From: Patiria pectinifera
Lineage: Eukaryota > Echinodermata > Asteroidea > Valvatida > Asterinidae
Direction of reading: 5' to 3'
Length of the DNA: 64,000 nucleotides
Assembly: GCA_029964075.1 (NCBI GenBank)
Contig: CM057149.1
Span: forward strand, 568,465 to 632,464
This document shows, piece after piece, positions 9,996 to 49,448 of the stretch. The notes beneath the pieces were generated by a model. That model was not told the DNA's origin. It saw only the letters and a list, made by a program, of their open reading frames with translations, and ran no database searches. Made by a program: the position numbers and the translations under genes. Each line of letters opens with the position of its first letter. The stretch's first letter is position 1.

Positions 9996-10142
9996 TTATA
10001 TGATGGTACATCCACAACAGCACTGCTGTGGATAGTCTGGTGCATGCACTTTGTGCTCAAATCCATAGACAAAGAAGTTTCCTTGGGTCTCTTTCCACTT
10101 GTACATAGCTTGAGCTACAGGAATGACACGCACACTGTGGCG
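9996..10142 (-). CDS. SSUH2: SSUH2 coding exon 11 (C-terminus and stop)
   Basis: Encodes [20 protein letters not shown], then a YG-E-KV-A-DYP block, and ends [10 protein letters not shown] then TAA (405-452). RxVPVxxxxYxWxxxxxxFxVYG is a family signature. The last four residues, C-T-I-I, fit a CaaX prenylation box, with three cysteines just upstream that could be palmitoylated (inference). The acceptor is TTGAACAG/CGCCAC. Confidence 0.92.
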   Translation of the reverse strand, partial: RHSVRVIPVAQAMYKWKETQGNFFVYGFEHKVHAPDYPQQCCCGCTII

Positions 10143-22100: not shown

Positions 22101-25100
22101 AAGGTTACAACTTACAACTATAATTATGTGTCTTGTTTTTTATTTAGATTATTGTTATTTATTATCAGCGGTCTCAAGTCTCGGTCTCAGTCTCAGACCA
22201 TATCAGTCTCGGTCTCGGTCCGCCTTGAAGGGGCTTGTCTCGGTCTCGGAACTTCAGGTCTCAGTCTTGGTCTTGGACTATCTGGCCTCGACTTCAACAC
22301 TGGTATACAGCACCATGTAAACTTTGACCTTGGTCCGACCTTGACCTACATGTAGGCCAACCAAACCAGGCACCCACTATAATGTAATTAATGGGACCTA
22401 TTACAGTAATAATAATAATAATAATACTAATTTGGGAGGCTAATCATCCTTACTCGCAGCTGGTATGCTGAATTGCGAAGGACGCGGCTGCAACGTGGTC
22501 GGGCCGCTGGTACGTAAAGGTGCCTATGGCTGCCGGCCACATCAACCCATATATGACCACAGAGCACAGCCTGAGATCGAGAGTGTTTGATTTTTCCGGG
22601 GGGAGGAAAACCGGAGGGCCCGGAGAAAAACCCTTGTGACAAAGGAGAGAACCAACGCACAACTTTACTCACATGTGATCCGCGGCCAGTATTCGAACCG
22701 TGGTCACCTTGGTGAGAGGCGAGCGCTTTACGCACAAACCACCCATGCCCCATGCCACCCACAATAAGTGTACCACATTGCTTTAATCTAGCGTGTCACA
22801 ATTTTGTTTCCTTATGCCACTGGACTAGTAGTGGAGCACGGTCGAATAACTTGAACTTGGGTGGTTTCATTGGGTTTTTTGGGAGGGGGGTGTTGGGAGA
22901 GGGGGTGTTGGAGGGTGAGAATTAGGACAAAATTCAGGGGCGAAGTTCAGTTCTAATTTTAAGAATGGCTGCACACAGAACTACTTTCATTGACAGCCAT
23001 GTTTCCTATTTTCAATGATGGGCATACAGTATGTGACTGAGCCAGAGCACAAATGTATAGCATACAACACAATCTCAGTCAATGAAGAAAGACAACTGTT
23101 TAATAATCATACATCACAAACCTGTGAAATAATGCGCTCCAGTGGAAATCCAGTTGTATGCTGCTGAACCAACTGTTTGGATGCTTGGTTGATGGTTTGA
23201 TCAGGAAAATGATTAATTGGCCAGACCTAGTAAATGTAAGTCAACAAAAGCAAGCTCATATTATAAGCCTCATTAATAGTGGCTACAAAAATAAGAAGAA
23301 GACAAAATATTGGATATAAGCTTCCTCCTTCATTCCCCAGATACCTGTTCCCCTGAAAATATGGTTGATTCAATTTTCAATTCTTATTGGCCTTTGATAT
23401 ACAAACTTTCCAAAAGTGGTACAAAAGGACAATACTACGTCGGATCATACATGTAAGACCTCCTTGAAATATAGGTCTCCATGCACAACTGAAATTTTTA
23501 TGAGCCAAGATTGGGTTAATTTTTGCCTGGTGCTGAAACAGAAACTTAGGACAATAAATTATCTACAACTGCTTAAAAACAAGGATAGATAAGATTCACC
23601 TTTAATGAAACAAGCATTAATAGACGGGGAACTGCACGTGGCGCTGCACGTGACCGCATCAAAATCGAAAAATACGCACTGATCACACAGGTATAAAATG
23701 CATTTCTGTGCAAAATGAAAGACAATTTTGGCAAAAAGACGCATGATATGATATATAAGAAATGTTGGATCCATGTAATGACAACTAATGTGCATTCAGT
23801 AGTGGCTATCCACATTACAATTTTTCAATTCATCGTACATGTATATGAATTCATCGTAAATGAATGTTGTATATGGCCAGCTCTGATATCCTCAAAAGGC
23901 CAAGTGAATCAGTGACCCCTTCAAGTACGCTGGGCATGGGAAATCCACCCACATGCTAATCACGTTCGAAGATCCTATCCCGTTCAAGGGCGGATCCAGG
24001 GGGGGGGCCCAAAGGGGGCCATGGCCCCCCCAAAACGAAACCAATTTTTTTTTTTTTTGATGTGACATCGCAATAAAGGCAGGCAATGAGTACACCACCA
24101 TCTTTTCTTCAAAAAAAATTGGTTAAAGTGGTCAGAAATTGCCTCAGATCGCACCACAGAGTATATAGAATCCCCCCCAAAAATTTTTGACCCACTTTTT
24201 TGGGGGGGACCAAAAATGTTTTTGGCCCCCCCCCCCCAAATTGTGTTCTGGATCCGCCCTTGATCCCGTTACTGATGATCCGGCCCAGGTCGTGCCCCGC
24301 TTTCGTTCCAACCAATAAACATTGACTGCTAGTGGAAAGTTTTGGGGCGGAGCATAGGTGGTCCATTCATCATCCATCAAACGGCTGTTTATGGACATGT
24401 TCGGAAACCTGATACACTAAACTTTCCATTGGAGTGAAATTCATATGTGTTAAAAAATAGCCGTCTGCTTTGGAGGATTGTGGTGAGATTTTCAGGGAGC
24501 GGCGTACCATGGGTACGCGTTGAGTCTTTCAACCATGTGATGGTCCTACGGAGAACTGAACACTACTTAATACATGTATGCATGATACACATACAATTAT
24601 TTTGCATCGCACAATGTGCAATTTATTTTGAAAATGCGTAGCACTTTGTGCATATTTGCGTCGCAAAATGAGATGCGATACCAGGAAATCGAACGCTGAC
24701 CACATCTATCAATGTCAGTCAAGGCATGGCACCCTCAGTTAACATACCTACCACAGCCTGTCAATTGTACCAATATGAGGCCCGTTCACAGACCTATTAA
24801 AGCCTGTCACCGGATAGATTCCGACATTTAGCTCATCAATACTGAGGTTTAGAAAAAAACTACTTCTAAAATATATGCAAATATACCATTCCTAAACAAT
24901 TTTCAGGTATCACCCCTTCTAAATGTACTTTGTATTGCCAATAGACTATACGTGCCAAATTTGGTGCTTTGGACCAGTCTCACGTTTCGACCCATAAGCC
25001 ACCTGTCTATTTCTAGCTTTAAGCTAGGAATCACTGTGACTATTAATTGAGGTAAATGCAGAGTAGAGGTTTTGATTTGTTTCCCTTTGGTGGAAATTTC

Positions 25101-28100
25101 ATTATAAGTAGTCACATTTTGTGTGCATGCACACTGGCAATGCATTTGTAGGTATTGGCGGGAGTATTTTCTTAGAAACTATAGAAAATCCCAGCAGATT
25201 TGTGGAGAATTCTTAATAGTTGCTACCTGGCAACTTTTCTGGAATTTAACTTGGCATGGGATTACCACATTTTATAACTTCCCATATAGAAAATACATTA
25301 GCATTCATCCCAAAAAAAGAACTTTGAGTCATTTTCCAGTTGTTGAGATGTACATTTCTTTTGTGAGGAGGTACACGAAAGATAATCTATGACCCTTAAA
25401 ATGGTATCCTTGTAACATACAGGAAGTTCATGTAAAACAAGTCAGGTGTGGTAACAGACACAAATGCCCCGCAACCGTGACTGTTCCCATGACATGACTT
25501 CACTCTTTTAACATCAACTTACATGTACCTGGGTCACATGGAACGTTCATTGACATCATAATTGTTTTCTGTAGGATATATGAATTAATCCCAATGATCT
25601 CAGAATAGATATAATGTATTTCTTTGCTTTTCTGTTGGGAAGTCATTGTATGTGACTTAAAAGTGTGAGTGAATGTGAAGAGATCCTGTACAAACAAGCT
25701 GAATTAAAAAAACCCACAGCTGTACATAAAACAAAATAAAGGATCCCATTTCAATTTGATACTGAACAAGATTTAAGATAGGCATCTTACGGTTACCAAG
25801 AACAATCCCCAAACCAAATCTGAAGTTCATACGTAAAGTATTTCTCAAGTTATCGTGCTGACAAGATTTATATTGTTTAAGCCACTGTGACCTTGACCTT
25901 TAACCTTTTGGCCTTAAATGCAATAGGCTTCTTAGGATTACCAAGAGCAATCCACAAACCAAATTTGAAGTTCACATATATGAAGTATTTCTCAAGTTAT
26001 CGCCCCGACAATATTTCTATTGTTTTAGCCAATCTGACCTTGACCCTTGGCCTTTCGGCTCTAAATGCAATAGGCTTCTTAGGGTTACCAAGAGCAATCC
26101 ATTGACCAAATGTGAGGTTCATATGTTACGTATTTCTCAAGTTATCGTGCTGACAAGATTTATATGGTTTTAGCCACTCTGACCTTGACCCTTGACCTGA
26201 GTTCGAGTCCCACCCGAAATGCAATAGGCTTCTTAGGACTACCAGGAGTGATCCACAAACAAAATTTGATGTTCATATGTTAAGTCAAGTTATCGCGCTG
26301 ACAATATATGTCAGTGCAGGGCAAAACCTAGTTGGATGAAGATTTCTATTGTTTTAGCCACTGTGACCTTGACCCTTAACTTTTCAGCCCCAAATCCAAT
26401 AGGCTTCTTACGATTACCAAGAACAATCCACAAACCAAATTTGAAGTTCATACGTAAAGTAATTCTCAAGTTATTGTGCTGACAAGATTTCTATTGTTTT
26501 AGCCTCTGTGACCTTGACTTTTAACCTTTCGGCCCCAAGTTAGGCAAGTTATTCGAGCTATTCGAGCTGACAAGATTTATACATTGGTGCAGGGCAAAAC
26601 CTAGTTGGATGAAGATTTCTATTGTTTTAGCCACTGTGACCTTGACCCTTGACTTTTCGGCCCTAAATGCAATAAGCTTCGGAGGATTACCTAAAACAAT
26701 CCACAAACCAAATTTGAAGTTTATATGTTAAGTATTTTTCAAGTTACCGCGCTGACAAGATTTCTCCGGACACACACTAAACCCACCCACCCACCCACAG
26801 GAGGACAAGGCGGAAACAGTATGGCCCTTTGGCTTCGCCGCGGGGCATAAAAGACTAACTTTTTTGATGGCAGATGTTACATTACAGGAACCTGAGTGCA
26901 GGCAAAGACTTGAATCCACGTTTAGTCTTTGATTATTACAACTCCGCTTTCAATGATATATGATATGTATTTGTAAATGGTTTTATACCAAACATTTATT
27001 GAGGTTTTAACCATCACTGGTTGTTTGCAGTTCTTACAAGACACGCATGCTTACCCTTGGTTGTTCCTCAGTGAAAGCAACTTCTCCTGTGACACCTCGA
27101 ATCAGCTCATCAGGCAGAGAGGTTCTCTCCACAATACTATCACTCAAATGGTTGAACCTACCATTTATCAAAAAATACATTCAAGTGTACATGTCATTGT
27201 CTTTCTTTTGTAAAGAAAAATAATCAAATTCCATCTTAAAAAAACTTTGGTTGTGGTACCTGCTGCTACATCAGACTCGAACCGACCGGCTGACCCCAAC
27301 AAGCTAGGTGGTTCAGAGGTAAGACGTCTGCACTAGTAGGCAGGAGGTCATGAGTTCGAGTCCCACCCGAGTAAGCTTTGAGATTTTTGCAAGCCCTTGG
27401 ACAACACTGAATATAACCATCCACACCAAGGTATTAAAATACCTATAAGCATGTTAATAACTCCACTGGTGCATGTAACACCCCCCCCCCTCCCCATGCA
27501 AAGAGCTATGTTTGGTGGTTTATGTGGGTAGCCACTGAAATTTGATCAATCAATACTTTTTTTCTAGACAATCTTTAAGGGATAACAAATGACAACTAGT
27601 TTTTGATACTGCCTGTGAGAAGAAACTGGTTGGTTTATCAATTAATATGCCTAGAACCAGGCCAAAAGAGATCGATGAAGTCACGCCATTTTTCAATATG
27701 AACAGGCACAAAAAAGGTACTGTTGTCTGTCACTCCCTGCAATCAAAAATTCTATGGCATCAGATTATGTAATGTCGAGTCATACATTTATATAATGCAC
27801 TGTAGGCCAATACTTACCACTCAATGGTGAGCTTGATGAAAACTTTCAGGTTTCCAGCTCCAGCACAACTGCCACAAGTCACTTGTCCATGGCCATGACA
27901 TGTTTTACATCTATATGTATCAAATACAAATTAAATAGCACCAATTGGTAAGTACCATATCGTAAATATAAATATATTGTAAGACATTATGTCAGAATAT
28001 TCAATCATTAACTACACATTTTCAATGACAGACTAACTTGATACATGTAAAAGCACAAAGGCACTTCTTGTACAAGATTCCTCTCCAGTGTCACATGATA

Positions 28101-31100
28101 CGAGGTCATGTAGGAATGACTTACTGGTATGTATGAAGAGTTTCTCTTGGAAAAACACTTCTAATGAGGGGCACCCTTGTGCATAGTAGACTATTCACAA
28201 AGGCAAAAGACTAGAGAAATGTATGCAAAGACAACTTTTAGCACTTTCTAGAACCACCCTACTTTACTAATCACTACACTGCAAATTGAAATATAAAGTA
28301 TCTTACAATGGATACATCATGGAGGAAGGACAATCCTCCATGTTCCTTCCTCCATGGATAAATGAACATGTATTTGTATCATTCTGGAAAGAATGTGACA
28401 TGCTGTCAAAATCAGATACTTCTTGGCAGCTTGGCAAAAATAAGTTTTGTACTGTACAAATAAAGATCTTACCCCTTTGAAATAACAATCTAAAACTTTC
28501 ACATTATATTTTAGACACATTTTTTATCGGGTCATTCTATAGACTTATCTGGTGACAGCCATTTTCTGAGGTAGTGCCAGGCTTGCACGAGTCATGCTCA
28601 GGTAGAACGCACCCACTGGTCGGCTCCCCCGACCAATAGAGAATACCAAAATGCAAGCACACAGTACCTTTAAGAATGCCTGCAGCATGCTTGCGGATGT
28701 GGTGCCACCTCCAAAATAGCTTCTAATTTTGTTTGTCGGATTAATCTATGAATTTGGGGTCCACTTTTCCTGTCCCTGTTACATCTGGCACCTATGATGT
28801 TATAATTCTGATGCACTCCTTAATGCAGTCGTCCTCCAAGAGAGATCATATATTGCAAACTATTTACCCAACATATAACAAAATCATTTAAAGTTATTCT
28901 TAATGATACATCCATGGCAATTGCAAAGTACCAAAGTAACAGGGACAGGAAAATAGGACACCTAGAACCTTAATTTATAGAATGAAACGCACTTGGTAAT
29001 GGGGCGTGGAACATTTTTATTTGAAATTGTCAAACTCAGTTGTAAAGATTTTTATGAAAAAAAACCCAGTAATAGTATGAAATTCAAACTTGTTATACTT
29101 TTAAGCATTTATTAATTTGAACAAATGCAATTTTATTTACATGTTTAAATGATGACATCACGATAATGTCACAACTTATTTCACATCTTTGGATATGGGT
29201 TTATGTTTGTAATAGGTTTCATCTTTATCCCTTGAACCATTTGAATGAAATTACGTCTGTCTTAATATCAACAATTATTTCGGTATTTTGAATTCGCCAA
29301 AACTGACCATTCTTTAAACCCAGAAGTAAAGGTCAAGTGACTTTACGTACAAATGTGTATCAAGGCATGGTCTTTCAGATAACAACTTATGAACATGATT
29401 CTATATTTTGATCATGAGTTATGATTGGAACATAACAGTCACTTTATGAACTAAAATTGCTTGTAATTTGACAGATGATGTCATCATGACTTCACACTTG
29501 TATGCACACCTCTGTATCAGGGTTGATGTTCAATCCAAACTTTGAAGTTCATGCACTGTTTGAAAGAAAAGCCGCAGAGAATTATTGTCAAGAAAAAAAA
29601 TTACACACAAGAACCAAGAAAGAAGACAAAAAACAGCCCCATCACCCAATACAGAAAGGGAAAACATTCATCTCCGCATTGTTTTTTGAGTAGGTAATAT
29701 CTCCATTTCAAGTGCTGCCCGACAAGTATCTGATTCTGACAGGTAACATCACAAATATATATAAATAATACTGGATGGCTTTGAGGGTGATTAAAGTATT
29801 ATTGCACTTGCTATAACACAGTTGCACTTGTCTACGAACTGTGCAGTATTGTTATAGCAAGTGCAATATATTCTTGTATCCCCTGAACAAAGGCATCAAA
29901 TGTTCTAGAATTATTATTTATATCAGGCTGACTTGATCCAAAACATTGTTATTTATATTGGACTGACTTGACAAAAAAAAACCCACAAGTTTCCTGTTGG
30001 TGCTTTGTAATAATTGCCATCTGCTTTCCTACTTATACATTTATCAAGGTTTAATTTAGAACTTTGACAAAAAACCTGCAGCGTAAACTTTTTCAGCGTC
30101 TTAAAATCTTTCCGCAGATTTTTCTCTGCCAAATACACTGGCAGTATATTTACTCTCGTCTTGGTTGCTTTCAAGATATTTTCAGCGTCTTGAGTTTTCA
30201 AATTTTCATTTAATTATTCTCTTGCAAATTTTGCACTGCTCGAAGCTACCCATATTTGTTGTTAATAAATAGAGCGTATTATACCCTGTGTGCCCCTGCG
30301 CTCTGTTGACTGGTTGAAAACTGTGAGTTTCTACACTCTTGAGTGTGGGATCCAAAAATGAGCGTTGATACCTTAAAATATTGCATTGTCATCCAGGTTT
30401 TTTTCCAGAAAGCATACAATATGACGTCGATTTATTTGGACTCTGTGGAAGCTTGATATAAATAATAATTTATCACTGTTTTCTGTAAAGTATACTTTAT
30501 GTTATGTAACAAGCGCTTACTTCTGATGTCCAGTTCCATGGCACCAGGTGCACTCAACATGGTTGTCATGGTGATGATGTCCATGGTGGTCATCATCATG
30601 CAAGAGAGGACTATGAACATGACCACTACCATTACAGTGATGACAATGAATCTACAAACCCAAATTAAATAAAACAAAATTTGAAAACCTTTGTAGAAAT
30701 CCTTTACATGCTATAGCTGGGAATTAACCAACCAAGACCCACTTTCGTTGCTCTGCTAACCACAGAATTCCACACTTACATGTACATGTACGATGACCAT
30801 TCTGTGCTTACGTGCTGTAAGCACAGGATCCTTATTTATGAGTGAGTGTAAGCCAGAATTCTTCACTAACCCGTGAAATATGCAAGGAGTTTTCTGCTAT
30901 AGTAAGCAGGGATTTTCTACTTACAGTATACAGAGCCATAATATCGGGCCCAGGATTTAAACCTGTCACCTTCCATGTACATGTATAATGGAGTCCCCTA
31001 TGAAGGGTTGCATGGGTGGCTTGTGCGTAAAGCGCTCGCCTCTCACCAAGGTGACCACAGTTTCGAATCCTGGCCGCGGATCGCATGTGAGTAGAGCTGT

Positions 31101-34100
31101 GCGTTGGCTCTCTCCTGTGCCAAGGGAGTTTTTCTCCGGGCCCTCCGGTTTTCCTCCCTCCGGAAAAATCAAATACTTTCGATCTCAGGCTGTGCTCCGT
31201 GGTCATATATGGGTCGATGTGCCCGGCAGCCATAGGCGCCTTTATGTGCCAGCGGCCCGACCACGTTGTAGCCGCGTCCTTCACGATTCAGCATACCAGC
31301 TGCGAGTAAGGATGATTAGCCTCCCAAATTATTATTATTGTTTTTATAAATGCAGCGCACTTTGATATTTCTCATGCACTGTTTTAAAACCTCTTTGTTG
31401 ACAAACTTCAAATTCATTCAGTTAAATACTGGTACTTATTAAAATTTACTTAAATAATGCTGGCTGTTTTATACCTTTGTGAACTATGTCACGAACAGTG
31501 TCATGAAATTTAGTCAAATATTACAAATGTGTGATACGGATACTGTGCTCGGTGTAGGCACGGATGTACAGTGTACCTACATGTACGTCCGCGAGTGCCC
31601 GTTCGGTTTCCTGACGAAAGACTCCCTAACGATGCTTGATTGAATGGTAGAGAAGAGTCTGATTCAACAACAATTTTCAAGCAACATTTTTTTGAAAATG
31701 AGGATCTGAATTTGGGATTTTAATATTCTAATATTTTTTACAATTGGGAAGCCCTTTTAATCCTGAAGTTCACTTTTAAAAAATATTGAGGGCGAAACCT
31801 CTTATAAATTTGGTAAAAGTGTATACTACACAGTACATGTACCTTTGAGCCTTTGGGGTTATCTTTGACCTTTGCTTTGTATTAAAGGGGTCAACAATAA
31901 ACTTTGTCCTAGTTCTCAACCACGATGATGTGCAAAATTTGTGAATTGTGTTAGTGTATTGGTGTCGATGAGAACACTACTTAACTTAAGATTCATAAAA
32001 GGACTTGGACTCGGCGACAAGGACTCAGACACAAAGGACTCGGACTCAGACTCAGATACCAAGGACTCGGACTCAGACTCGGATAGCAAGGACTCGGACT
32101 CAGACACGAAGGACTCGGACTCGGACTCGGACTCGCATACCAAGGCCTCGGACTCAAACTCGGACTCGGACTCGGATACCAAGGACTCGGACTCGGATAC
32201 CAAGGACTCGGACTCGGATACCAAGGACTCGGACTCAGACTCGGATACCAAGGACTTGGACTCAGACTCGGACTCGGATACCAAGGACTCAGACTCGGAC
32301 TCGGATACCAAGGACTCCGACTCAGACTCGGATACCAAGGACTCGGACTCAGACTCGGATACCAAGGACTTGGACTCAGACTCGGATACCAAGGACTCGG
32401 ACTCGGATACCAAGGACTCAGATACCAAGGACTCGGATACCAAGGACTCGGATACCAAGGACTTGGACTCAGACTTGGATACCAAGGACTCGGACTCGGA
32501 CTCGGATACCAAGGACTCGGATACCAAGGACTCGGACTCAGACTCGGTTACCAAGGACTCGGACGGGTTGGGGTGGACTGGACTACAGCACCGATGATCG
32601 GTGCTTGATGTACACATTGACATGTACACATTGATTTGGGATCCCAATGATGGAACACTTACTAAACAATGTGCATCACTGTGGTGTCTGCCGTGTGCGA
32701 TCAGCCTTACGGGAAAATTCACTAAGCGCTCCAAATGCCTCTTTATTTTATTAAGCGCTGTGTGATTGTTATTTACAAGCTGATAGGAAATTTCATTACT
32801 CGAATCGTTCATTTTTTAAGCCTTTGAGAACTAAATTTAAGCATTTTTAATGCTTTTTAATGTCTTAAATCTAGTTTCTTCATCTTAAGATTTTTAAAGC
32901 TTTTTCCACATCCTTTCTTCAACCTTACAAAGTATGCCTAAATAAATTTCATTTGCTAAAAGCTTTGTCAGATGCAAACAATAATGGCATTTTGTAAAGC
33001 TTCTTTGAAAGATTATCTATCATCAAAATAATAAGATCATTTAATATTTAAACTTATTGCTGTGCTAAATCTAGGTAACTCTTCGGTAAGATATTTAGGC
33101 CACTCTAGTTACGACAATGCAACAAATGAACTGGAAATCTATGCCATAACATCCCAGCTATACTATAAAAAAAGATGTACATTTTCGCGAGTTTGTTGAA
33201 CGTTGAACAATAGAGGACAATAGGGCCCTCAATTCCTAAAGGTCCCCAATTTGGTGATAGTGTACAAAACATATGGAAGATCTTCCTAAAAAGCTAGAGT
33301 ACAAACGAAAGTGGGACAATAGTGGTATAAGCTATGTGGACATTCCTTTGTTTTCGTGTAGTTAAGAAAACTCGGTACAAAAAATAACTTTGCTTAAACT
33401 GTAAAAACTCTTTCAACCCCAAATTTGTTTTTGATTTCCTTGAATGTTTCTCTTTATTCTGCGACAGATAACCTTAACCTGAAAATGCCTCTAAACCTGT
33501 TTTCCAGAGAAGGCGAAACGTTATGTGGACACGGCTTAGGCCACAACGTCAACACAACCTGCATTATGTGAACATCTTTTGTTCACATGTCCACATAGTG
33601 ACTGTAAGACAAACTCACTTGTGTGTGTGTGAGTTTGTTTCTGCATTCAATAGGGGACATTGATCAACAAATGACTCTACAAGGATACAAATTTCAGTTT
33701 GTATGTCCCTCTTTTGTTTGTACTTTGACCTCCCATATGTTTGTATCTATTGTCAATTGTGGACCTTCAGAAATTGGGGACCCTATTGTCCTATTGTTCA
33801 ATGTCCCCTACTAAATGCAGAAACAAACTCATACACTCAGACACACACATGGAATACACTACTGCAAGATCCCCCTTTCTTGGCTTAAAAGCCAAGGGGA
33901 TAAAAAAAGGAACTTGATTAATGATAAGTACATGTAACTTACATTACCATCTCCATGGCATGAATGGCAACGTTTGCGTCCAATACCCACGCAGTCATGG
34001 CAAGGCTATAAAGAAATGTCATATGCATAAATGTACACACAAAGTGATGAAGCAAATTCATTGTGGAGGAAATCACTAATGGTTCAGATTTACCCTGAAA

Positions 34101-40100: not shown

Positions 40101-43100
40101 AGCACGTGACCCTCCATGCAAGTCCACCCAGTACATGTGTGTACAAGTCGTGACAGACTTGGCAGGGCTAGTGCCAGCAGTATTTACTTGAACACAAACA
40201 TTGCAAAAGAGTTAAACTGTTGAGATCCTGAATCCATCAAAGTCCCCCAATAGCTCAAAATGGAGGTATCCTGAATCCATCAAAATCCACCAGTTCCGCT
40301 AGGCTTCGAATCCTGAGTCCATCAAAATCCCCCAGTTTGTTCAATATGGAGGTATCCTGAATCCGCCGAAATCCCCCGAAACAGGGGGGTGGATTTTGAT
40401 GGATTTAGGTACGTTAGGGTTAAAGGTCCTACCTTGACAGATGCAGTATGAGGCACTTCTACAGCAGTTTTGTGGTTCTTGAATTTAGCAGGGGGATTGC
40501 ACTGCATATCCCATGGCCCAGGTGCAGGTCCATTGGCGGGTCCATCAACCATTTGCCCTGATGAAAACAAAGGAAATGTCCAGCACTCTCAGCAAAACTT
40601 ATTAAATCATAAAAGAAACACACTTTTTGTTAATTGACTTTCACACATTACAAAAGTGTCACACATAAGTGTGAAATGTGGAACACATACTCTGATATTC
40701 TTGTATTTTACAGCACGATTTCAAAAACATTGACACCATCAAATCTAGTCATTGTTTACCTTTGAAAGGTTCTGAAGCCCATGCAGTTGTCCGCTTTTCT
40801 GTGAAAGTTTCCAACTTGTACTTTAAAGATGGAAGGGGAAAACAAGGAAGAAAACAGATACACATGTAAAGTGTTGACCTGGGGAATATACCTGTACCAA
40901 TTGATCAAGTTCATCCCCATGATGTTGTGACCAATCACAGCCATGATTGATGTCTGCACAAATGTCATTCAAAACATTCAATTATCAAACATACCTGTAT
41001 ACAAGCATACTTACATGGAAGGCACTTGAATGACTGATATCATTGAATACCATTTCTTGAGCAGCCTTTTTACCATAACAGCAATTCTCAGCCACATGAC
41101 TAAGTAGGGCCTCCCTTGCCTGTTCCACTGTCACGGTGGGCATACTGTTAAGTAATGCAGCAAAGACTAAAATAGGAGGAGGATCATTCACTATATCCTG
41201 TCAAATCTATCAATTTTACCAGTAGGTAGGTTGGAGGAGGGATGGGCATGATAAATAACACCAGCACAAATAGAAATCTAATCCCTGGAGTGTAAATCAT
41301 GCATCACAGAGAGTGTGAAATAATGTCAGAAATGGAATAATTACCAGCAACGTGCCAAGCTTGTCTATTTTGTACTGTTTATGTATGCACTTATTAAAGT
41401 GCATCCATGTATGACAGCCTAAATAAATCTGCATCGTACACTCAAGAAATATTGAGTAGCCACTATTTAACAATAAGCCATTTGCGTGTAACCTATACCC
41501 TTTGGGATTTACATTTGAAAAACGTCTGGTACAATGACTTGCTCAGAATGCTTGGCACATTTTAACTGTGAATTCTCCAGACCAAAGACACTGTTGCTAA
41601 TCACATGATTCAGGGCAAGCTCTTGCATAGTTACGTAAGAGACGCTCAGCACCAATACATCGTTCACAATGGGTGAGAATGGCACAAAGACACCAGACCA
41701 TGCCGGAGCTGGGGGTTGCTAGCATAAGGCTTGCCCCGAATCACGTGATATAGTAACAGTCTCTTTGGTCGGGAGAATGCTAGGTTAAAACGTGCAAAGC
41801 ATTGTATTAAGTCAGCGTTCCAGATTTTATTCAAATTTAACACGCAAATGGCTTATTGTTGACTGCTGCAATGTGGGTAACTTTTGTTTATCAAAAATGG
41901 CTTTGATGTGTAAGTGAAACCAAGTAAGAGAAGAAGAAATCTGTAAACCTTTCATGGCTATTGGATGCAGCACTCGATGTGAAACTATTATCACGCTATC
42001 ACCACTAATGGGTTTTCCCGGCCAATTTCACCAAGTTTTCATTCAATTTGCCTGGCTCATTAGATTAAAATTGAAAAATCACGTAGATCGACATTTGACA
42101 ATCAAAACCAATCATTCAATTTCACTATCCGAGCATTTTATCGTCTTTTAGCTTCACTCGTCCCTGTAAAAGATGCATTCAAATTAAAACTATCGCGTTG
42201 TTCATTAAATTTTGTCCAAACCAGTAGTAAGGGGTTGATTGGGCATTCCTTTTCATTAATGAGCAAACATATTTCACATTTTGTCATCTTGGCATAAATC
42301 ATATCCAATGTCTTCAATTCGTAATTGCACACCTCGCTTTCTTAATTAAAGGGTTCGTGCAATGAATTTTTCTCAGCACATGCTTGGATCACTACATGTA
42401 TAGGGGAAATAAATCCTGAAAATTGCATGAAGATACGGTCTTCCAAATAGGAGAAATTAATTTTAAAAATTTCACCCGCCAACGTGAACATGTCTGTGTA
42501 CATGTAGTTTCATTCAAAATAAAGTGATACATAACCTTTAGAAATCGCCCTTCGCAACCATATGGCTGATAATCCTTTGTTTGTACTACCTTTTTTGCAA
42601 CAACTCTCATTGGTTTTGTACACGTTTTCCAACCAAGGAGTCCTTGATTCGGTTTTTGACCTCGATTCACTGATGATGTTGCACGTGTGTGTCCTCGATT
42701 TACCCCATAAACAAATGCATACGCACACAAAGATATATGCACAGACGGAAAATGCTGTCGCAATATCCCCCTCCGGCTTACAGCCACTTGGTATGTAGCA
42801 TAAACATGCGTGCTCTTGTATTGTATTACGCTTGAGGACAGACAACAAAAGGAGCACAAAGGAACCTTTCATCCTCAGACGACGGTGCCTATTGTCCTCG
42901 AATGCCGGTTTGCGCGCTTAGTCTATGGGAAAGGTTAAAGGAACAAAGGAAAACATAAAGCCGATCCTCGGAAGTATAGCAAAACACGACTGTCTGCGTG
43001 TGTGTGTGTGTGTGTGTGTGTAAACCCCGGCAATCGTGGACTATGGAGGAAAGAATAAGAGCATTAACCAAAGGTCCACATTTGACAGCACGTCCACAAT

Positions 43101-46100
43101 TGAAATTTGTGTACAAAACCAATGAGAACTGTTAAAATAGTAAAGGTACAAACAAATGAATGAAAATAACAGCGTTGCTGTTGAAACCCCTCAGCCAGAG
43201 TCAAGTTATCATCCGGAAACCATTAACTGAACATGGTGACCTTGACCTTTGGCCTTTAACCCCAGAACCAGTCCCAACATGCCTGTACCAATGGGAAACC
43301 CCTAACGAAGTTAGACATCAAAATCTCATTTCTAACTCAAGTTATCATCCGGAAACCATTTACCTTTAACTCACCATGGTGACCTTGACCTTTGACCTTT
43401 TGACCCCAAAACCAATCCCAACTTGCCTACTCCCAAGGGCAACCCTCTACCAAAGTTAGACACCCAAATCTCATTTCAAACTCAAGTTATCATTCGGAAA
43501 CCATTTACCTTTTACTCACCAGAGTGACCTTGACCTTTGACCTTTTGACCTCAAACCCAATACCAACTTGCCTACTCCTAAGGGCAACCCCCTACCAAAG
43601 TTACAACCCCAAACATTTCTAACTCACCATGGTGACCTTGACCTTTGACCTTTTGACCCCAAACCCACTCCCAACTTGCCTTCTCCCAAGGGCAACCCTC
43701 TACCAAAGTTAGACACCAAAATCTCATTTCTAACTCAAGTTATCATCCGGAAACCATTTACCTTTAACTCACCACGGTGACCTTGACCTTTGACCTTTTG
43801 ACCTCAAAACCAATCCCAACTTGCCTACTCCCAAGGGCAACCCCCTACCAAAGTTAGACATCCAAATCTCATTTCTAACTCAAGTTATCATCCGGAAACC
43901 ATTTACCTTTAACTCACCACGGTGACCTTGACCTTTGACCTTTTGACCCCAAAACCAATCCCAACTTGTCTACTCCTAAGGGCAACCCCCTACCGAAGTT
44001 ACAACCCCAAACAACATTTCTAACTCAAGTTATCATCCGGATACTAAGCCGGACAGCCAGACGGAATTGTGGGGTGATAGCATTGTGTTCCCAATATCCC
44101 TTTTTCTAAAGATTCCCTTCTGGGGTGATGTTTTTCTATTGTGAAAAAAAGTGGGGTGATGTGTCCTGAAAGGAACATCACACCACAAGGGTGGTATGGT
44201 CAGAACGCACTGACGGACGGACGGACGGACGGACGCCCTAGGCGATGACAATACCCCTCGAGCCTATCGGCTCAGGGGTAAAAATTAGTGACAATAGGGG
44301 GTCCATGATTGCACAAAGCCGCCTTTCGCCTGTGAACTTTGCCCCCCCCCCCCCCAATGCTACAAGAGCAAAGGACAATGCAGGTGTACACGTATTTATG
44401 CCAGTTTATACATTTCCATATCTTCAAACTCCTTTAAAATCAAAGCAATGTACACAAGCACAAATTGAAAATGTAAATATTTGGATTAAAAAGTCGCCCA
44501 CTTCAAAAGGGCCAAACTTCAATGATTTTGTATAGAGAAGATATACCAATGTACATTGTACCAAAATTTCCTTCACGGTAATACACATGTACACATTTCA
44601 AATGGGAACATTTAATTTTATTTTCTATAGGTGGTAACAGAAAAATACAACCTTGCACAATGATTCCCTTGAATCAAGTTGTTACTATGAGCTTTAACCA
44701 TACCTGATTGTTACTTCTACATCAATTATCTTTCTCTCGGTATGTGTTAATGTGGCAAACAAAATTGCAACTGGAAGTGAAATAGTCTTGGGGGAAGTTG
44801 AATGGGTTCAGAGGGCACTTAACACTCACTTGGGCAAATCCGAACGCTGTGGTGGTTCCATCATACTTTGATCATAGGAAGGAGGGGCCAGCGGGGCACC
44901 AAAATTGCCATAACCAGCAATAGCATCCATCTTGTCTGATGGTGGGGCAGTGGCTGCTGCTGGGGGCTAGAATGCACATCAAGTAGAAATTATGCACATG
45001 AAAACAATGCAATCATACATTCTGTGCCACAATCATTCACTCAAAATCAATCAAGTGACTGTTTTCAACAGTAAAGAGCTCCCAGCCTACATAAAGCAAA
45101 TATGATCTGACTGTTGGTGACTAGCCTGTGTAAAAGGCATGGCAGGTGAAGAGGATTGTTTTTTGTTTTTTTTACTGTCTGTGACTGTTCAGATAGCTGG
45201 AGGTTAATACATACGATAGTACGTGTAGCAATGCTAACTATCTTCAGTGCAGTATACCCCATGGCTCCAAATTTTAAAATACAACAAACAATGTTGTATT
45301 TTGGTGTTTGCCTTCTAGAGCAGGGATAACATTATGGGCAGATGTGCAGTTCTTAGGAAAATGATGTCCAGGATGATGTTTCCAGAATGTTCGAGAGCAC
45401 CTGTATTTTTGGCAACTTTTCTCAGTTAAATTCAGTTATATTTTACCAACCAGCAGGGACAAAAATCGGACAAGAGAAGAGCTTTTTTTAAATAATTTTA
45501 ATCTATTAACAATGTGATGACTATGCATCCAATGCTAACTGCATCCAATCATGCCAATGCTACATGTACATGTACCATACAAACACACATGTTCACCAAT
45601 GTATACCATTTTGTATACGGCTACAGTGCCACAGTCATACCATCTAGTATTATATGTGTATAAATATGATACTGGATCACTTAAGTGTGACAGGCATCTC
45701 AAAAAATTGAGTTCAAAATACAGTAAAATTTCTGTGTTTATTTTAATCTATGATCTGTGTAGGAAGCAATTTAAAAGTATAGAGATAGTTTCTTAACCAA
45801 AAGTACAGTTTTCCTAGTTAATTATTTTCTGAAATTCAAATGTAACGTTCGTAACAAGGTGTCCTGTTTGTGCTATAATTAGCACTTATGAGGTTGGTAA
45901 CTTGTGATATGTGGTATGCATTGGCATTAGTCAGGGAGCCCAACACTTGAAATATCGACCTTTTTGGACCAGGACTTTGGATTATAGAGAAATGACCAAC
46001 TGATTAATGTACTGAAAGACGCCAATACAAACGTTACCTAAAATGTACAGAAAACACTTCAAATTTTGCTGTTGGTTAATTTTAGTTACTAAATGTTATA

Positions 46101-49100: not shown

Positions 49101-49448
49101 TCGGGGAGGGGAGGGGAGGGACGGGTCTTGAGTAGTAGTCTCTGTTCTGTGAAAATGTTCAAAAATTTGGATGGCTGTAAGTACCTGTGTTGCTGAAGTG
49201 TTCATTCCACCGCTTTGCCCCTGGGGCTGAGGATATCCACCACCTTGCCCCTGGGGCTGAGGATATCCACCACCTTGCCCCTGGGGTTGAGGATATCCAC
49301 CACCTTGCCCCTGGGGTTGAGGATATCCACCACCTTGCCCCTGGGGTTGAGGATATCCTTGAGGTGCCCCTCCCTGTTGATACCCCCCTGACTGTGGCGG
49401 GTAACTGCCTTGTGGCTGCTGCATCTTAGAGAGATCTAAAGATGACAT
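9996..49448 (-). CDS. SSUH2: SSUH2 (ssu-2 homolog) gene, 11 coding exons, 452 residues
   Basis: Minus-strand join of exons 49448-49185, 44966-44830, 41144-41015, 40820-40760, 40557-40433, 34005-33943, 30651-30521, 27910-27818, 27157-27055, 23226-23122 and 10142-9996. Every border is GT/AG and all phases agree, giving 1359 nt. Seen: a Pro/Gln/Gly-rich N-terminus with five [10 protein letters not shown] repeats (residues 31-80), a core from about 135 containing [14 protein letters not shown] and YKLETFTE, an APGPW block near 209, six CxxCxGxG motifs (241-323) with a His/Asp spacer (278-291), and a C-terminal domain ending CCCGCTII. Known: SSUH2 proteins share this core and DnaJ-type zinc-finger-like repeats; their molecular role is poorly defined. 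Inferred: zinc binding and possible C-terminal lipidation. The ATG is the first after an in-frame TAA 15 nt upstream. Any 5' non-coding exon is not identified. Confidence 0.93.
10920..11210 (+). repeat. Diverged copy of the satellite edge seen at 26.7 kb
   Basis: CACAAACCAAATTTAAAG, AGTATTTCTCAGGTTATCGC, an ACACACACCCAC tract and CTTCGGCTTCACTGCGGGGC repeat the order found at 26700-26850, the right edge of the tandem array there. Confidence 0.55.
11560..12900 (+). pseudogene. Decayed Ty3/gypsy-type gag-pol remnant
   Basis: In order on the plus strand: a zinc knuckle [14 protein letters not shown] (11629-11670), a retropepsin-like [10 protein letters not shown] (11856-11885), the start of a reverse transcriptase with [17 protein letters not shown] and [11 protein letters not shown] (about 12137-12360), then the end of RNase H with [14 protein letters not shown] and [18 protein letters not shown] (about 12400-12610). 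Frames change repeatedly, a TGA interrupts the RT part, and the central RT palm including the YxDD region is missing. It is therefore an inactive, internally deleted copy in the last SSUH2 intron. LTRs were not identified. Confidence 0.85.
13216..13325. repeat. 43-bp tandem repeat, about 2.5 copies
   Basis: Units of the form GACCGGGTTG..GATGGCCACTG..AATGGACAGAGCC recur at a 43-bp period. Short local minisatellite in an SSUH2 intron. Confidence 0.75.
14329..14604. mobile_element. Foldback element with about 60-70-bp arms
   Basis: The left arm (14329-14398, GAATTCCTAAAATCC to CTCACCTCTGTTTACC) is inverted at 14544-14604. A third piece of the arm follows directly (14605-14650). The body between the arms (14399-14543) is found inverted at about 21930-22095, so this is an interspersed family. 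Confidence 0.7.
14650..17760 (-). pseudogene. Decayed DIRS-type retroelement (RT, RNase H, weak recombinase region)
   Basis: Reading the minus strand from 17.4 kb down: an RT segment (17048-16746) preserves [32 protein letters not shown] and FTVPLGLYK, matching the DIRS pattern KMETL--VL-SLK-G-WAASID--D---VPIH--HQK. RNase-H-like VQTDNSTVQ lies near 16230 and a Pro/Leu-rich [16 protein letters not shown] near 15720, as seen between RNase H and tyrosine recombinase in DIRS/Ngaro elements. Stops and frameshifts are frequent. The recombinase catalytic residues could not be identified. It is a dead copy in the 13-kb SSUH2 intron. Confidence 0.6.
18045..18440. repeat. C/G-tract repeat with GCTAGCCCCCCCAAAA motifs
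   Basis: A poly-G tract (18055-18066), then two GTAGCCCCCCCAAAA-like motifs and a final GCTAGCCCCCCCAAAATATTGG with CTGGATCCACCG. It resembles the GGATCC/poly-C MITE at 24 kb but ends were not defined. Confidence 0.4.
18441..20560. other. Intronic, no recognised gene
   Basis: No coding block. Repeats of GGAGAGC/GCTCTCC around 19150-19230 are echoed by GGAGCGC/GCGCTCC at 21190-21265. Confidence 0.35.
20570..20612. repeat. Poly-T/A low-complexity tract
   Basis: Uninterrupted T runs separated by AA. It could be a retroposed tail but has no recognisable body. Confidence 0.7.
21930..22095 (-). repeat. Second copy of the 14.4-kb foldback body
   Basis: On the minus strand it shares CTCACCTCTGTTTACC, ATTTGCATAT, CAGCGCCCAAGCCTCACCCT and TGTTACACAAAGACTCC-like blocks, in order, with 14385-14510. 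Confidence 0.7.
22165..22275. repeat. GGTCTC/AGTCTC short tandem block
   Basis: Irregular six-base units such as GGTCTC and AGTCTC. It is related in sequence to the large CGGACT/CAGACT array at 32.0-32.6 kb. Confidence 0.6.
22407..22765 (-). repeat. tRNA-derived SINE, family B, minus copy
   Basis: On the minus strand a tRNA-like head with GTGCGTAAAGCGCTCGCC and box B GGTTCGAATAC (22699-22690), then CTCCGGGCCCTCCGGTTTTC, ATCTCAGGCTGTGCTC and GGATGATTAGCCTCCCAAAT, and a (TTA)n-type tail at 22407-22430. About 85-90% similar by eye to the plus copy at 31005-31340. Confidence 0.85.
23122..23226 (-). CDS. SSUH2: SSUH2 coding exon 10
   Basis: A 105-nt phase 0-0 exon encoding [20 protein letters not shown] and onward to RIISQ (370-404). 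The acceptor is ACTAG/GTCTGG and the donor TCACAG/GTTTGT. A 13-kb intron packed with mobile elements separates it from the last exon. Confidence 0.87.
23985..24262. mobile_element. hAT-type MITE with perfect 8-bp target duplication
   Basis: TIRs are CAAGGGCGGATCCAG and its inverse CTGGATCCGCCCTTG. The element is flanked on both sides by ATCCCGTT (23977-23984 and 24263-24270), an exact 8-bp duplication typical of hAT transposition. It is 278 bp with no coding capacity and G- and C-tract interiors. Located in the intron between SSUH2 exons 10 and 11. Confidence 0.85.
24830..25010. repeat. Partial copy of the 52-kb foldback terminus
   Basis: TATCACCCCTTCTAAAT, TTTGGTGCTTTGGACCAGTC and AAGCCACCTG occur here in the same order as at 53095-53200, the right end of the large foldback element. 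Confidence 0.65.
25780..26770 (+). repeat. About 150-bp tandem satellite with TGACCTTGACC motifs
   Basis: Six or more diverged units, each with GCCACTGTGACCTTGACC, AATGCAATAGGCTTCTTAGG, CACAAACCAAATTTGAAG and TTCTCAAGTTATCG. Two units carry an extra TGCAGGGCAAAACCTAGTTG block. The right edge has a (CCCA)n tract and GGCTTCGCCGCGGGGC (26780-26850). Intronic in SSUH2. Confidence 0.85.
27055..27157 (-). CDS. SSUH2: SSUH2 coding exon 9
   Basis: Encodes [20 protein letters not shown] and onward to EEQPR (336-369), matching the family's W-N-----V-----P-EL pattern. The acceptor is GGTAG/GTTCAA and the donor CCAAGG/GTAAGC (phase 0). Confidence 0.88.
27305..27400 (+). repeat. tRNA-like sequence, probable SINE head
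   Basis: Box A-like GTGGTTCAGAGGTAAGACG and box B GAGTTCGAGTCCCACC with tRNA-like spacing. The acceptor ends do not pair well and no intact tRNA fold is apparent. A fragment of the box B part is also found inside the satellite at about 26201-26217. Confidence 0.55.
27818..27910 (-). CDS. SSUH2: SSUH2 coding exon 8 (repeats 5-6)
   Basis: Completes Lys304 and encodes [20 protein letters not shown] followed by [10 protein letters not shown] (305-334). These are the last two CxxCxGxG knuckles, followed by the beta-strand-like segment that begins the C-terminal domain. The donor is GAGTG/GTAAGT (phase 2). The split codon gives Trp335. Confidence 0.92.
28757..28956. repeat. Short inverted repeat around CTGTCCCTGTTAC
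   Basis: TTTTCCTGTCCCTGTTAC is inverted as GTAACAGGGACAGGAAAA about 180 bp away. Variants of GTAACAGGGACACC recur at 35088. Intronic. Confidence 0.5.
30521..30651 (-). CDS. SSUH2: SSUH2 coding exon 7 (repeats 3-4, His-rich spacer)
   Basis: Residues 261-303 plus a split codon. Contains CHHCNGSG, then a His/Asp-rich spacer [14 protein letters not shown] (278-291), then CTWCHGTG. The spacer separates the six knuckles into two groups of three. The acceptor is TTTGTAG/ATTCAT and the donor CAGAA/GTAAGC (phase 2), giving Lys304 with exon 8. Confidence 0.93.
31005..31340 (+). repeat. tRNA-derived SINE, family B, plus copy
   Basis: Same family as 22407-22765, in the opposite orientation. Head with GTGCGTAAAGCGCTCGCC and a box B variant GTTTCGAATCC, body with CTCCGGGCCCTCCGGTTTTC, and tail CCTCCCAAATTATTATTATT. 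Lies in the intron between SSUH2 exons 6 and 7. Confidence 0.85.
32008..32572. repeat. CGGACTCAGACTCGGATACCAAGGA minisatellite
   Basis: Roughly 565 bp of hexamers (CGGACT, CAGACT) punctuated by CGGATACCAAGGA. Because the unit length is close to a multiple of three and lacks stops, three long ORFs overlap it (Ser-Asp or Ser-Glu rich). These are best explained by the repeat rather than by a gene. Confidence 0.85.
33205..33850. mobile_element. Diverged foldback repeat
   Basis: The inner pair GAGTTTGTTTCTGCATTCAA and AATGCAGAAACAAACTC (about 33633-33830) are inverted around 150 bp. Outside it, 33205-33340 is similar to the inverse of 33690-33815. No coding capacity. It lies beside SSUH2 exon 6. 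Confidence 0.6.
33943..34005 (-). CDS. SSUH2: SSUH2 coding exon 6 (CxxCxGxG repeats 1-2)
   Basis: A 63-nt phase 0-0 exon for residues 240-260. It contains CHDCVGIG and CHSCHGDG, the first two of six DnaJ-like cysteine knuckles. The acceptor is TTTATAG/CCTTGC and the donor GGTAAT/GTAAGT. Because it is symmetric, skipping it would keep the frame. Confidence 0.92.
34426..34742. mobile_element. Foldback MITE with 73-bp arms and an extra arm copy
   Basis: The arms 34567-34639 and 34655-34727 are near-perfect inverses, separated by about 15 bp. A diverged direct copy of the left arm sits at 34436-34512. The outermost AATCATTCAAATCACTCATG and CATGAGTGATTTGAATGATT also pair, suggesting an original element with a duplicated arm. 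Confidence 0.8.
35285..35442. repeat. GAGTAC minisatellite, interrupted by a transposon
   Basis: Repeated CCGAGTACGAGTACTTG units. The block resumes at 36533 (TACGAGTACTTG) after the 1.09-kb TIR element, showing that the element inserted into it. Confidence 0.7.
35443..36532. mobile_element. 1.09-kb TIR element with GTATAAGCCG repeats, TA duplication
   Basis: Ends are perfect 24-bp inverted repeats beginning CCGTAATTTTCGGAATATAA, flanked by TA on both sides (35441-35442 and 36533-36534). Subterminal GCGTATAAGCCGC motifs cluster at both ends. No transposase was seen in the interior. Superfamily not assigned. Confidence 0.85.
36816..39863 (+). mobile_element. Helitron2/Helentron-like element, copy 2
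   Basis: The 5' end GCTTTTCTGC..GCGGAAAAGC and the 3' end GCAAAAGCC with hairpin CTATG..TCTGTT/AACAGA..CATAG then CTAG and T match copy 1 at 5588-7930. TTTGTACACGTTT and TCACGTGACGTCA blocks near the 5' end are also shared. The interior (37.4-39.6 kb) is not obviously related to copy 1 and may be captured or inserted DNA. One interior stretch (37081-37400) is an interspersed repeat seen again at 53.5 kb. Confidence 0.55.
37081..37430 (+). repeat. Interspersed repeat shared with 53515-53860
   Basis: Both copies carry GTGAGAG, GGGAATTGATA, TCACGTGACCCTTCCTTCC, CCGGAAGT, AATTGGAAAAAG and GCTTCAAAAT-like blocks in the same order, diverged by roughly 20-25% by eye. Confidence 0.7.
40215..40424. 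repeat. GAATCCATCAAAATCCCCCA repeat cluster
   Basis: Three direct copies of TCCTGAATCCATCAAAATCC and one inverted copy (GGATTTTGATGGATTTAGG). A related block sits at 34746-34830. It abuts SSUH2 exon 5, ending within 10 bp of its donor. Confidence 0.7.
40433..40557 (-). CDS. SSUH2: SSUH2 coding exon 5
   Basis: Encodes [20 protein letters not shown] and onward to VPHTASVK (residues 199-239). APGPW and VPHTASVK are family hallmarks just before the zinc-knuckle region. The acceptor is TCATCAG/GGCAAA and the donor GTCAAG/GTAGGA (phase 0). Confidence 0.92.
40760..40820 (-). CDS. SSUH2: SSUH2 coding exon 4
   Basis: A 61-nt exon encoding [20 protein letters not shown] (residues 178-197), which closely resembles the vertebrate SSUH2 segment YRLETF-E-R--W--EP. 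The acceptor is TTTAAAG/TACAAG and the donor TCAAAG/GTAAAC (phase 1). The split codon with exon 5 gives Gly198. Confidence 0.9.
41015..41144 (-). CDS. SSUH2: SSUH2 coding exon 3 (start of conserved core)
   Basis: Encodes [20 protein letters not shown], then [11 protein letters not shown] and onward to AFH (residues 135-177). AREALL and CCYGKKAA are typical of the SSUH2 core. The acceptor is TTAACAG/TATGCC after a pyrimidine-rich tract, and the phase matches exon 2. Upstream sequence stays open, but using the earlier AG (GACAG/GATATA) breaks the frame with exon 2. The donor is TTCCAT/GTAAGT. Confidence 0.88.
42576..43156. mobile_element. Foldback/TIR element of about 580 bp
   Basis: TTTGTTTGTACTACC..CTCATTGGTTTTGTACAC at the left is inverted at the right (GTGTACAAAACCAATGAG..GGTACAAACAAA). 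A (TG)n run lies inside at 42997-43021. No coding capacity. Confidence 0.7.
42997..43021. repeat. (TG)n microsatellite
   Basis: About 12 uninterrupted TG dinucleotides. Confidence 0.9.
43195..44045 (+). repeat. Tandem satellite with TGACCTTGACCTTTGACC motifs
   Basis: Six or so units of about 110-150 bp containing AAGTTATCATCCGGAAACC, GGTGACCTTGACCTTTGACC, CCCAACTTGCCTACTCC and AAGTTAGACA. The array is followed by a (GGAC)n run and CCCTCGAGCCTATCGGCTCA. It is less diverged than the 25.8-kb array. Confidence 0.9.
44212..44235. repeat. (GGAC)n microsatellite at the satellite edge
   Basis: Six tandem ACGG units directly downstream of the 43-kb array and before the CTATCGGCTCAGGGGTAA end motif. 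Confidence 0.85.
44830..44966 (-). CDS. SSUH2: SSUH2 coding exon 2
   Basis: Encodes [20 protein letters not shown] and onward to RSDLP (residues 89-133). It is Pro/Ala-rich with a short [15 protein letters not shown] stretch and is probably unstructured. The acceptor is TTCTAG/CCCCCA and the donor CCCAA/GTGAGT (phase 2). The split codon joins exon 3 as AAT (Asn134). Confidence 0.85.
45840..46775. repeat. Dispersed TTACGTATGTAACA / GGACACC motif series
   Basis: GTTCGTAACAAGGTGTCC, TTACGTTCGTAACAAAAGAC, GTAACGTATGTAACACG, TTACGTATGTAACAGTTGG and GTTTGTAACATTTTGGAC follow each other at roughly 160-360 bp. This is probably an old tandem array. No gene seen. Confidence 0.45.
47495..47656. mobile_element. 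Palindromic foldback MITE, 162 bp
   Basis: The arms run from CAAATATTGAGTGGCT to the centre TTCACTCGGCTTCGCCTCGT and back to AGCCACTCAATATTTG. Nearly the whole element folds into one hairpin, with small differences such as TTTAAAATGTG against CACGCTG. It is intronic. Confidence 0.85.
47867..47932. repeat. GGTCTGTC/GGTCGGTC microsatellite
   Basis: Four-base units GTCG, GTCT and GTCC repeated with a CCGGCCGG centre. Confidence 0.8.
49185..49448 (-). CDS. SSUH2: SSUH2 coding exon 1 (start codon, P/Q/G repeats)
   Basis: Encodes residues 1-88, beginning [18 protein letters not shown]. Five tandem copies of a 30-bp unit encode [10 protein letters not shown]-type decapeptides. The region is low-complexity and probably disordered. 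The exon ends in phase 0 at an ACACAG/GTACTT donor. Reading straight through the donor keeps the frame open for another 74 codons, but those residues look like intron. An in-frame TAA just before the ATG supports this start. Confidence 0.9.
49209..49358 (-). repeat. SSUH2: 30-bp coding tandem repeat within SSUH2 exon 1
   Basis: Five near-identical units of GGATATCCTCA..CCCCAGGGGCAAGGTGG encode the decapeptides at residues 31-80. Copy number may vary between individuals. Confidence 0.9.

What the first reader, a model, noticed from the sequence alone, without database searches (positions are those of the whole stretch)
9996..49448. Complete SSUH2 gene reconstructed from 11 small exons across 39 kb
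Only exon 1 lies in a sizeable single ORF. The rest are 61-147 nt and were found by reading CxxC and core motifs on the minus strand. All ten junctions are GT/AG and all phases agree, so the 452-residue model is self-consistent. Introns reach 13 kb, large for such a short coding sequence.
Basis: partly seen in the sequence, partly recalled or inferred. Interest (0 to 1): 0.7.

Follow-up and report, generated by a model that had tools for sequence, protein, structure and literature searches.

The report
Ordinary animal SSUH2 gene, eleven exons
This stretch holds an intact-looking copy of SSUH2, a known animal gene for a putative zinc-binding helper protein, split into eleven small exons by long repeat-rich introns; the gene itself is ordinary, though what the protein does in cells is still unclear.

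Summary
Motif and splice-site searches led to the same model: 11 exons on the minus strand, 49448 to 9996, 452 residues plus stop, 10 of 10 introns GT-AG, longest intron 12,979 nt. Against a human SSUH2 sequence recalled from memory the protein aligns at 34% over 369 positions (E 4e-79); the parts outside the CxxC array also match on their own. Two human peptides printed in PMC2838759 occur in the recalled sequence, a partial check of it. It is an SSUH2 gene of an unidentified animal.

Weak points: exon 1, the start codon and most of exon 2 lack homology support; exons 9 and 10 were picked from many candidates by resemblance; no transcript, genome or fetched SSUH2 protein was available.

One lead: the protein ends CCCGCTII and recalled human SSUH2 ends CCGCTIV, both CaaX-like. 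CTII was near-completely geranylgeranylated by human GGTase-I in yeast (PMC11152559, passages). SSUH2 may therefore be lipid-anchored, resembling type I Hsp40s without a J domain; that step is inferred.

The parts
49185..49448 (-). Exon 1, 264 nt, residues 1-88: Gly/Gln/Pro-rich tail with 10-residue repeats
   Evidence: Open frame with a 30-nt tandem repeat, 5.1 copies; donor GTACTT; no homology support
44830..44966 (-). Exon 2, 137 nt, residues 89-134; contains PPSY
   Evidence: One of 4 candidates and one of 2 with the right end phase; alignment only weakly reaches it
41015..41144 (-). Exon 3, 130 nt, [24 protein letters not shown]...
   Evidence: tblastn E 6e-5 with recalled SSUH2; splice sites
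40760..40820 (-). Exon 4, 61 nt, [20 protein letters not shown]
   Evidence: tblastn E 0.018; splice sites
40433..40557 (-). Exon 5, 125 nt, [17 protein letters not shown]...VPHTASVK
   Evidence: Only candidate under the thresholds; tblastn E 7e-6
33943..34005 (-). Exon 6, 63 nt, CxxCxGxG motifs 1 and 2
   Evidence: Motifs; tblastn E 0.020 and 0.032
30521..30651 (-). Exon 7, 131 nt, motifs 3 and 4 with a His/Asp-rich linker
   Evidence: Motifs; joined alignment, gapped over the linker
27818..27910 (-). Exon 8, 93 nt, motifs 5 and 6, then [12 protein letters not shown]
   Evidence: tblastn E 3e-5
27055..27157 (-). Exon 9, 103 nt, [34 protein letters not shown]
   Evidence: Picked by resemblance from 88 candidates; weak acceptor; joined alignment
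23122..23226 (-). Exon 10, 105 nt, [35 protein letters not shown]
   Evidence: Picked by resemblance from 339 candidates; weak donor; tblastn E 1.1
9996..10142 (-). Exon 11, 147 nt with stop, ends CCCGCTII
   Evidence: tblastn E 1.4e-9; splice site
9999..10010 (-). Last four codons, CTII: possible CaaX prenylation signal
   Evidence: Sequence; the same tetrapeptide modified on a reporter by human GGTase-I in yeast (PMC11152559, passages); not tested on SSUH2

Best explanation
This is the protein-coding SSUH2 gene of an unidentified animal, on the minus strand, with 11 coding exons. Shown: an open, spliceable frame; collinear similarity to (recalled) human SSUH2; six full CxxCxGxG motifs in two blocks of three, 11 residues apart; no J domain returned. 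Inferred: the motif array binds zinc like the cysteine-rich domain of DnaJ and lets the protein hold or guide other proteins, without a J domain to recruit Hsp70. Inferred and less sure: the C-terminal CTII may carry a geranylgeranyl group, and neighbouring cysteines may be palmitoylated, placing the protein at membranes. The confidence below is for the gene identity together with the zinc-chaperone-like reading; I put identity alone at 0.95 and prenylation of this protein at about 0.45.
For: Model. blastp with recalled human SSUH2: 34% over 369 positions, 238 bits, E 4e-79; 50 shuffles of it reached at most 25 bits; parts before and after the cysteine array match at 1.8e-26 and 1.5e-27. Recalled sequence contains both peptides printed in PMC2838759. 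Six motifs, spacing 11, 11, 31, 11, 11, against 11, 11, 16, 11, 11 in the recalled protein. Pfam DnaJ_CXXCXGXG at 19.6 bits. CTII near-completely modified by human GGTase-I in yeast.
Against: The reference was recalled, and recalled motifs helped to pick exons, above all 9 and 10, so exon choice and similarity are not fully independent. All 4 Pfam matches lie below their cut-offs. No transcript. Residues 1-94 are unsupported by homology. Reports on the human protein place it in the cytoplasm (PMC2838759) or the nucleus (PMC7818184), which does not favour a membrane anchor.
Confidence: 0.75

Rival explanations
1. It is an SSUH2 paralogue, or a copy in decay, rather than the single working orthologue.
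For: Zebrafish has several genes named ssuh2 (ssuh2.1 and ssuh2.4 in PMC10421883, passages), so families exist. The rest of this genome could not be searched.
Against: No stop, frameshift or broken splice dinucleotide in 11 exons; no second copy elsewhere in the 64 kb (model against window). Introns rule out a processed retrocopy.
Confidence: 0.2
2. Exons 3-11 are right, but exon 1 and perhaps exon 2 are wrong: the true 5' end uses another exon or start, for example the ATG inside exon 2.
For: Residues 1-94 have no counterpart in the recalled protein. A rival exon 2 at 44786-44704 scored higher on splice sites, 7.7 against 5.9, with the same end phase. Modest exon 1 donor. Two AGs and a second ATG follow the first ATG within 27 nt.
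Against: Exon 1 lies in a 162-codon open frame whose repeat period is a multiple of three; the Pro-rich character continues into the chosen exon 2; phases agree.
Confidence: 0.25
3. The model is a chance assembly around CxxC-like motifs, or another DnaJ-like zinc-finger gene.
For: Exons 9 and 10 were chosen from 88 and 339 candidates; DnaJ-like motifs occur in many proteins.
Against: Both parts outside the cysteine array match SSUH2 on their own; 50 shuffles and the reversed window do not; Pfam returned no J domain.
Confidence: 0.02

Closest known systems
Human SSUH2 (C3orf32, fls485)
   Same: 34% identity over 369 positions, collinear to the last residue, with a sequence recalled from memory; six CxxCxG motifs in two blocks of three with 11-residue spacing; CaaX-like end
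   Different: Recalled human protein has four full and two truncated motifs, here six full; linker between the blocks is 15 residues longer here and rich in His and Asp; Gly/Gln/Pro tail here has no counterpart
Aplysia SSUH2 homolog (XM_005089228.2) and C. elegans ssu-2
   Same: Named invertebrate members: PMC8195618 (passages) and PMC5682872 (passage), where ssu-2 is called a predicted chaperone containing a DnaJ domain
   Different: Sequences not compared here
Type I Hsp40 chaperones (DnaJ, Ydj1, DNAJA1)
   Same: CxxCxGxG motifs; Ydj1 and DNAJA1 also carry CaaX ends (PMC11152559, passages)
   Different: No J domain or HPD here; six motifs with period 11; DnaJ central-domain match below cut-off, 19.6 against 32.7 bits

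Membership tests
SSUH2 | Collinear similarity to SSUH2 outside the cysteine array | tested here: met
   1.8e-26 before and 1.5e-27 after the array, against a recalled human sequence
SSUH2 | Repeated CxxCxGxG motifs, at least four full ones plus truncated ones in human (PMC2838759, passages) | tested here: met
   Six full motifs
SSUH2 | Motifs spread over three successive exons, as printed for human exons 4-6 | tested here: inconclusive
   Exons 6, 7 and 8 hold two motifs each; consistent, but human exon borders were not compared
SSUH2 | Groups with SSUH2 proteins in a tree | not testable with these tools
   No fetched animal relatives; two searches gave none
Type I Hsp40 (DnaJ) | J domain with HPD | tested here: not met
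   Not among the 4 Pfam rows; no HPD in the protein
Type I Hsp40 (DnaJ) | DnaJ central domain at Pfam's cut-off | tested here: not met
   19.6 bits against 32.7
CaaX-prenylated proteins | C-terminal CaaX accepted by a prenyltransferase | tested here: inconclusive
   Ends CTII, a tetrapeptide modified on reporters in PMC11152559; never tested on this protein

The most novel reading that the evidence does not exclude
SSUH2 proteins are membrane-anchored by a geranylgeranyl group on a conserved CCGCTI[IV] end, helped by palmitate on the neighbouring cysteines, and act as J-domain-less, lipid-anchored zinc chaperones that parallel the farnesylated Hsp40s Ydj1/DNAJA1. In this animal the His/Asp-rich linker between the two motif blocks adds further metal binding.
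Probability: 0.25. Interest if true: 0.5.

Novelty: new member of a known kind. Interest (0 to 1): 0.2.

Why it matters
As a gene it is ordinary. It shows that eleven short exons over 39 kb can be read from raw letters and that the model stands up to testing. SSUH2 itself is poorly understood: the review PMC7818184 says that no data on the functional relevance of SSUH2 were available, while reporting knock-down and mouse results and a missense mutation linked to dentin dysplasia type I (passages). If the CaaX-like end is used, it would give the family a concrete biochemical handle, testable by a simple labelling experiment.

Tried and rejected
Exon borders: one search held first-draft borders with small errors in several exons; one search holds the corrected ones. 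Another acceptor for exon 3 near 41168 was rejected on phase (read). Exon 2: 4 candidates; 44786-44704 scored higher on splice sites with the same end phase and was set aside for lack of resemblance; the other two had the wrong end phase. Exon 5: the only candidate. Exons 9 and 10: strict searches did not show them; found among 88 and 339 candidates under relaxed thresholds, by resemblance to recalled SSUH2 motifs.

Relatives: genome contigs, 6 stretches matched a pattern and 0 were confirmed; viral contigs, 0; Protein Data Bank by sequence, one row at E 0.53, a molecule named C4-Zn1-HEHE-1. Rfam at gathering score 0 matches, ARAGORN 0 genes. Pfam on the raw exon 1 open frame: 0 families. Pfam on 10 of 90 stop-to-stop frames of 85 or more residues (frames listed, counted): one sub-threshold row, no transposon domain. 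I considered whether the human disease residue (c.353C>A) is conserved and left it out, because isoform numbering could not be checked. No structure was predicted: the tool takes proteins read straight from the DNA, and this one is spliced, so it was not sent.

Papers: passages only of PMC7818184, PMC8195618, PMC8234607, PMC5682872, PMC4278762, PMC2838759, PMC10421883, PMC11152559, PMC11304957, PMC1175975; all others in search listings only. That SSUH2 prenylation is not in print rests on one search, 'ssuh2' with 'prenyl', 0 papers, in an open-licence library; a search for 'CTII' with CaaX or prenyl (10 of 452 listed) showed no SSUH2 paper among the 10 titles.

Full report
What was claimed.

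Check of the observation. I searched the minus strand for CxxC motifs and other recalled SSUH2 motifs, read the flanks, and looked for exons of the required phase in the gaps.

More than chance. Agreement of phases is built in by the choice of sites. The better test is similarity. A human SSUH2 sequence written from memory aligns to the model at 34% identity over 369 positions, 238 bits, E 4e-79. Fifty shuffles of it reached at most 25 bits. The regions before and after the cysteine array match separately at 1.8e-26 and 1.5e-27, so the result does not rest on CxxC repeats. In the raw window, tblastn of that sequence gave 18 rows, 16 on the minus strand. Eleven of the 18 lie on model exons and touch 7 of 11 exons, in the right order: exons 3, 5, 8 and 11 at E 6e-5 or better, exon 4 at 0.018, exon 6 at 0.020 and 0.032, exon 10 at 1.1. 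Exons 1, 2, 7 and 9 had no row, and 7 rows at E 0.89 or worse lie elsewhere. The reversed window gave 7 rows, best E 0.59. A caution: recalled motifs helped to find the exons, and exons 9 and 10 were picked by resemblance from 88 and 339 candidates, so exon choice and similarity are not fully independent there.

Check of the reference. Both human peptides quoted in PMC2838759 occur in the recalled sequence. That paper describes at least four CXXCXGXG motifs encoded by exons 4, 5 and 6, with truncated motifs in exons 5 and 6 (passages). The recalled human protein has four full and two truncated motifs, the third and the sixth. The window gene has two motifs in each of three successive exons, 6, 7 and 8, which is consistent with the same exon plan; human exon borders were not compared.

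What is less sure. Residues 1-94 have no counterpart in the recalled protein. Exon 1 rests on an open frame with a 30-nt in-frame repeat and a modest donor. Its ATG is preceded by an in-frame stop 15 nt upstream, but two AGs and a second in-frame ATG follow within 27 nt. Exon 2 was one of 4 candidates, two of them with the right end phase, and the other of the two scored higher on splice sites. Exon 9 has a weak acceptor and exon 10 a weak donor by my rough scores.

What it is. An animal SSUH2 gene. The animal was not identified. The window's own genome could not be searched. The prokaryote and viral collections gave no relative. The Protein Data Bank copy gave one row at E 0.53, so no solved relative was found by sequence. 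The introns hold satellite and dispersed repeats, enough reason for their length. G+C is 0.49 in the coding exons against 0.40 in the window.

How it may work. The six motifs stand 11 residues apart in two blocks of three, spacing 11, 11, 31, 11, 11; recalled human 11, 11, 16, 11, 11. Pfam gave 4 weak matches, 4 of 4 below their cut-offs, the best being the DnaJ central domain at 19.6 bits against 32.7. No J domain was returned and no HPD is present. A zinc-binding, Hsp70-independent holding or guiding role is the likeliest reading. [quoted passage not shown] None of this was tested here.

A lead. The protein ends CCCGCTII and the recalled human one CCGCTIV. Both fit the rule for geranylgeranyltransferase I, which takes X = leucine and sometimes F, I, M or V (PMC11304957, passages). 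CTII was near-completely modified by human GGTase-I in a test set of 22 sequences in yeast, and on the Ydj1 reporter the CaaL/I/M variants other than CSFL were also fully prenylated with human FTase present (PMC11152559, passages). CTIV does not occur in the main text of that paper. No paper holds both 'ssuh2' and 'prenyl'. As background, 11 of 2,183 stop-ended frames of 20 or more codons in the window end C-x-[ILV]-[ILMVF]. Against the lead, the human protein was reported in the cytoplasm or the nucleus. The idea that the neighbouring cysteines are palmitoylated is recalled practice from other CaaX proteins, not from a call.

Verdict. Confirmed and ordinary: a new member of a known family, with a C-terminal lipid signal that deserves a test.

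Noticed in passing
9999-10010 (minus): C-terminal CTII after CCCG looks like a CaaX box; recalled human SSUH2 ends CTIV.
   Followed up: partly
30521-30651 (minus): A 23-residue linker between the two motif blocks holds 10 His and 4 Asp; 15 residues longer than in the recalled human protein.
   Followed up: partly
49206-49358: Five near-identical 30-nt repeats encode 10-residue Gly/Gln/Pro repeats (97% matches); a likely length polymorphism.
   Followed up: no
25778-26765 and 43219-44130: Arrays with a period near 145 nt rich in TGACCTTGACC, in introns 9 and 2; the two families are distantly alike.
   Followed up: no
31989-32578: Array of GGACTCGGACTCGGATACCAA-like units in intron 6, open in several frames; probably a satellite, not a gene.
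   Followed up: no
5774-7126 and 36996-37056: Dispersed repeats carrying TGACGTCA-like palindromes, downstream of the gene and once in intron 5.
   Followed up: no
22412-22697 and 31062-31347: 286-nt inverted pair, 91% complementary, in introns 10 and 6: a dispersed repeat family inside the gene.
   Followed up: no
12543-12896 (plus): Open frame in intron 10 with [12 protein letters not shown], which from memory resembles the end of a retroelement RNase H; Pfam did not confirm it.
   Followed up: partly
60449-61744: Two neighbouring tandem duplications, units 344 and 294 nt, 97-98% alike, upstream of the gene.
   Followed up: no
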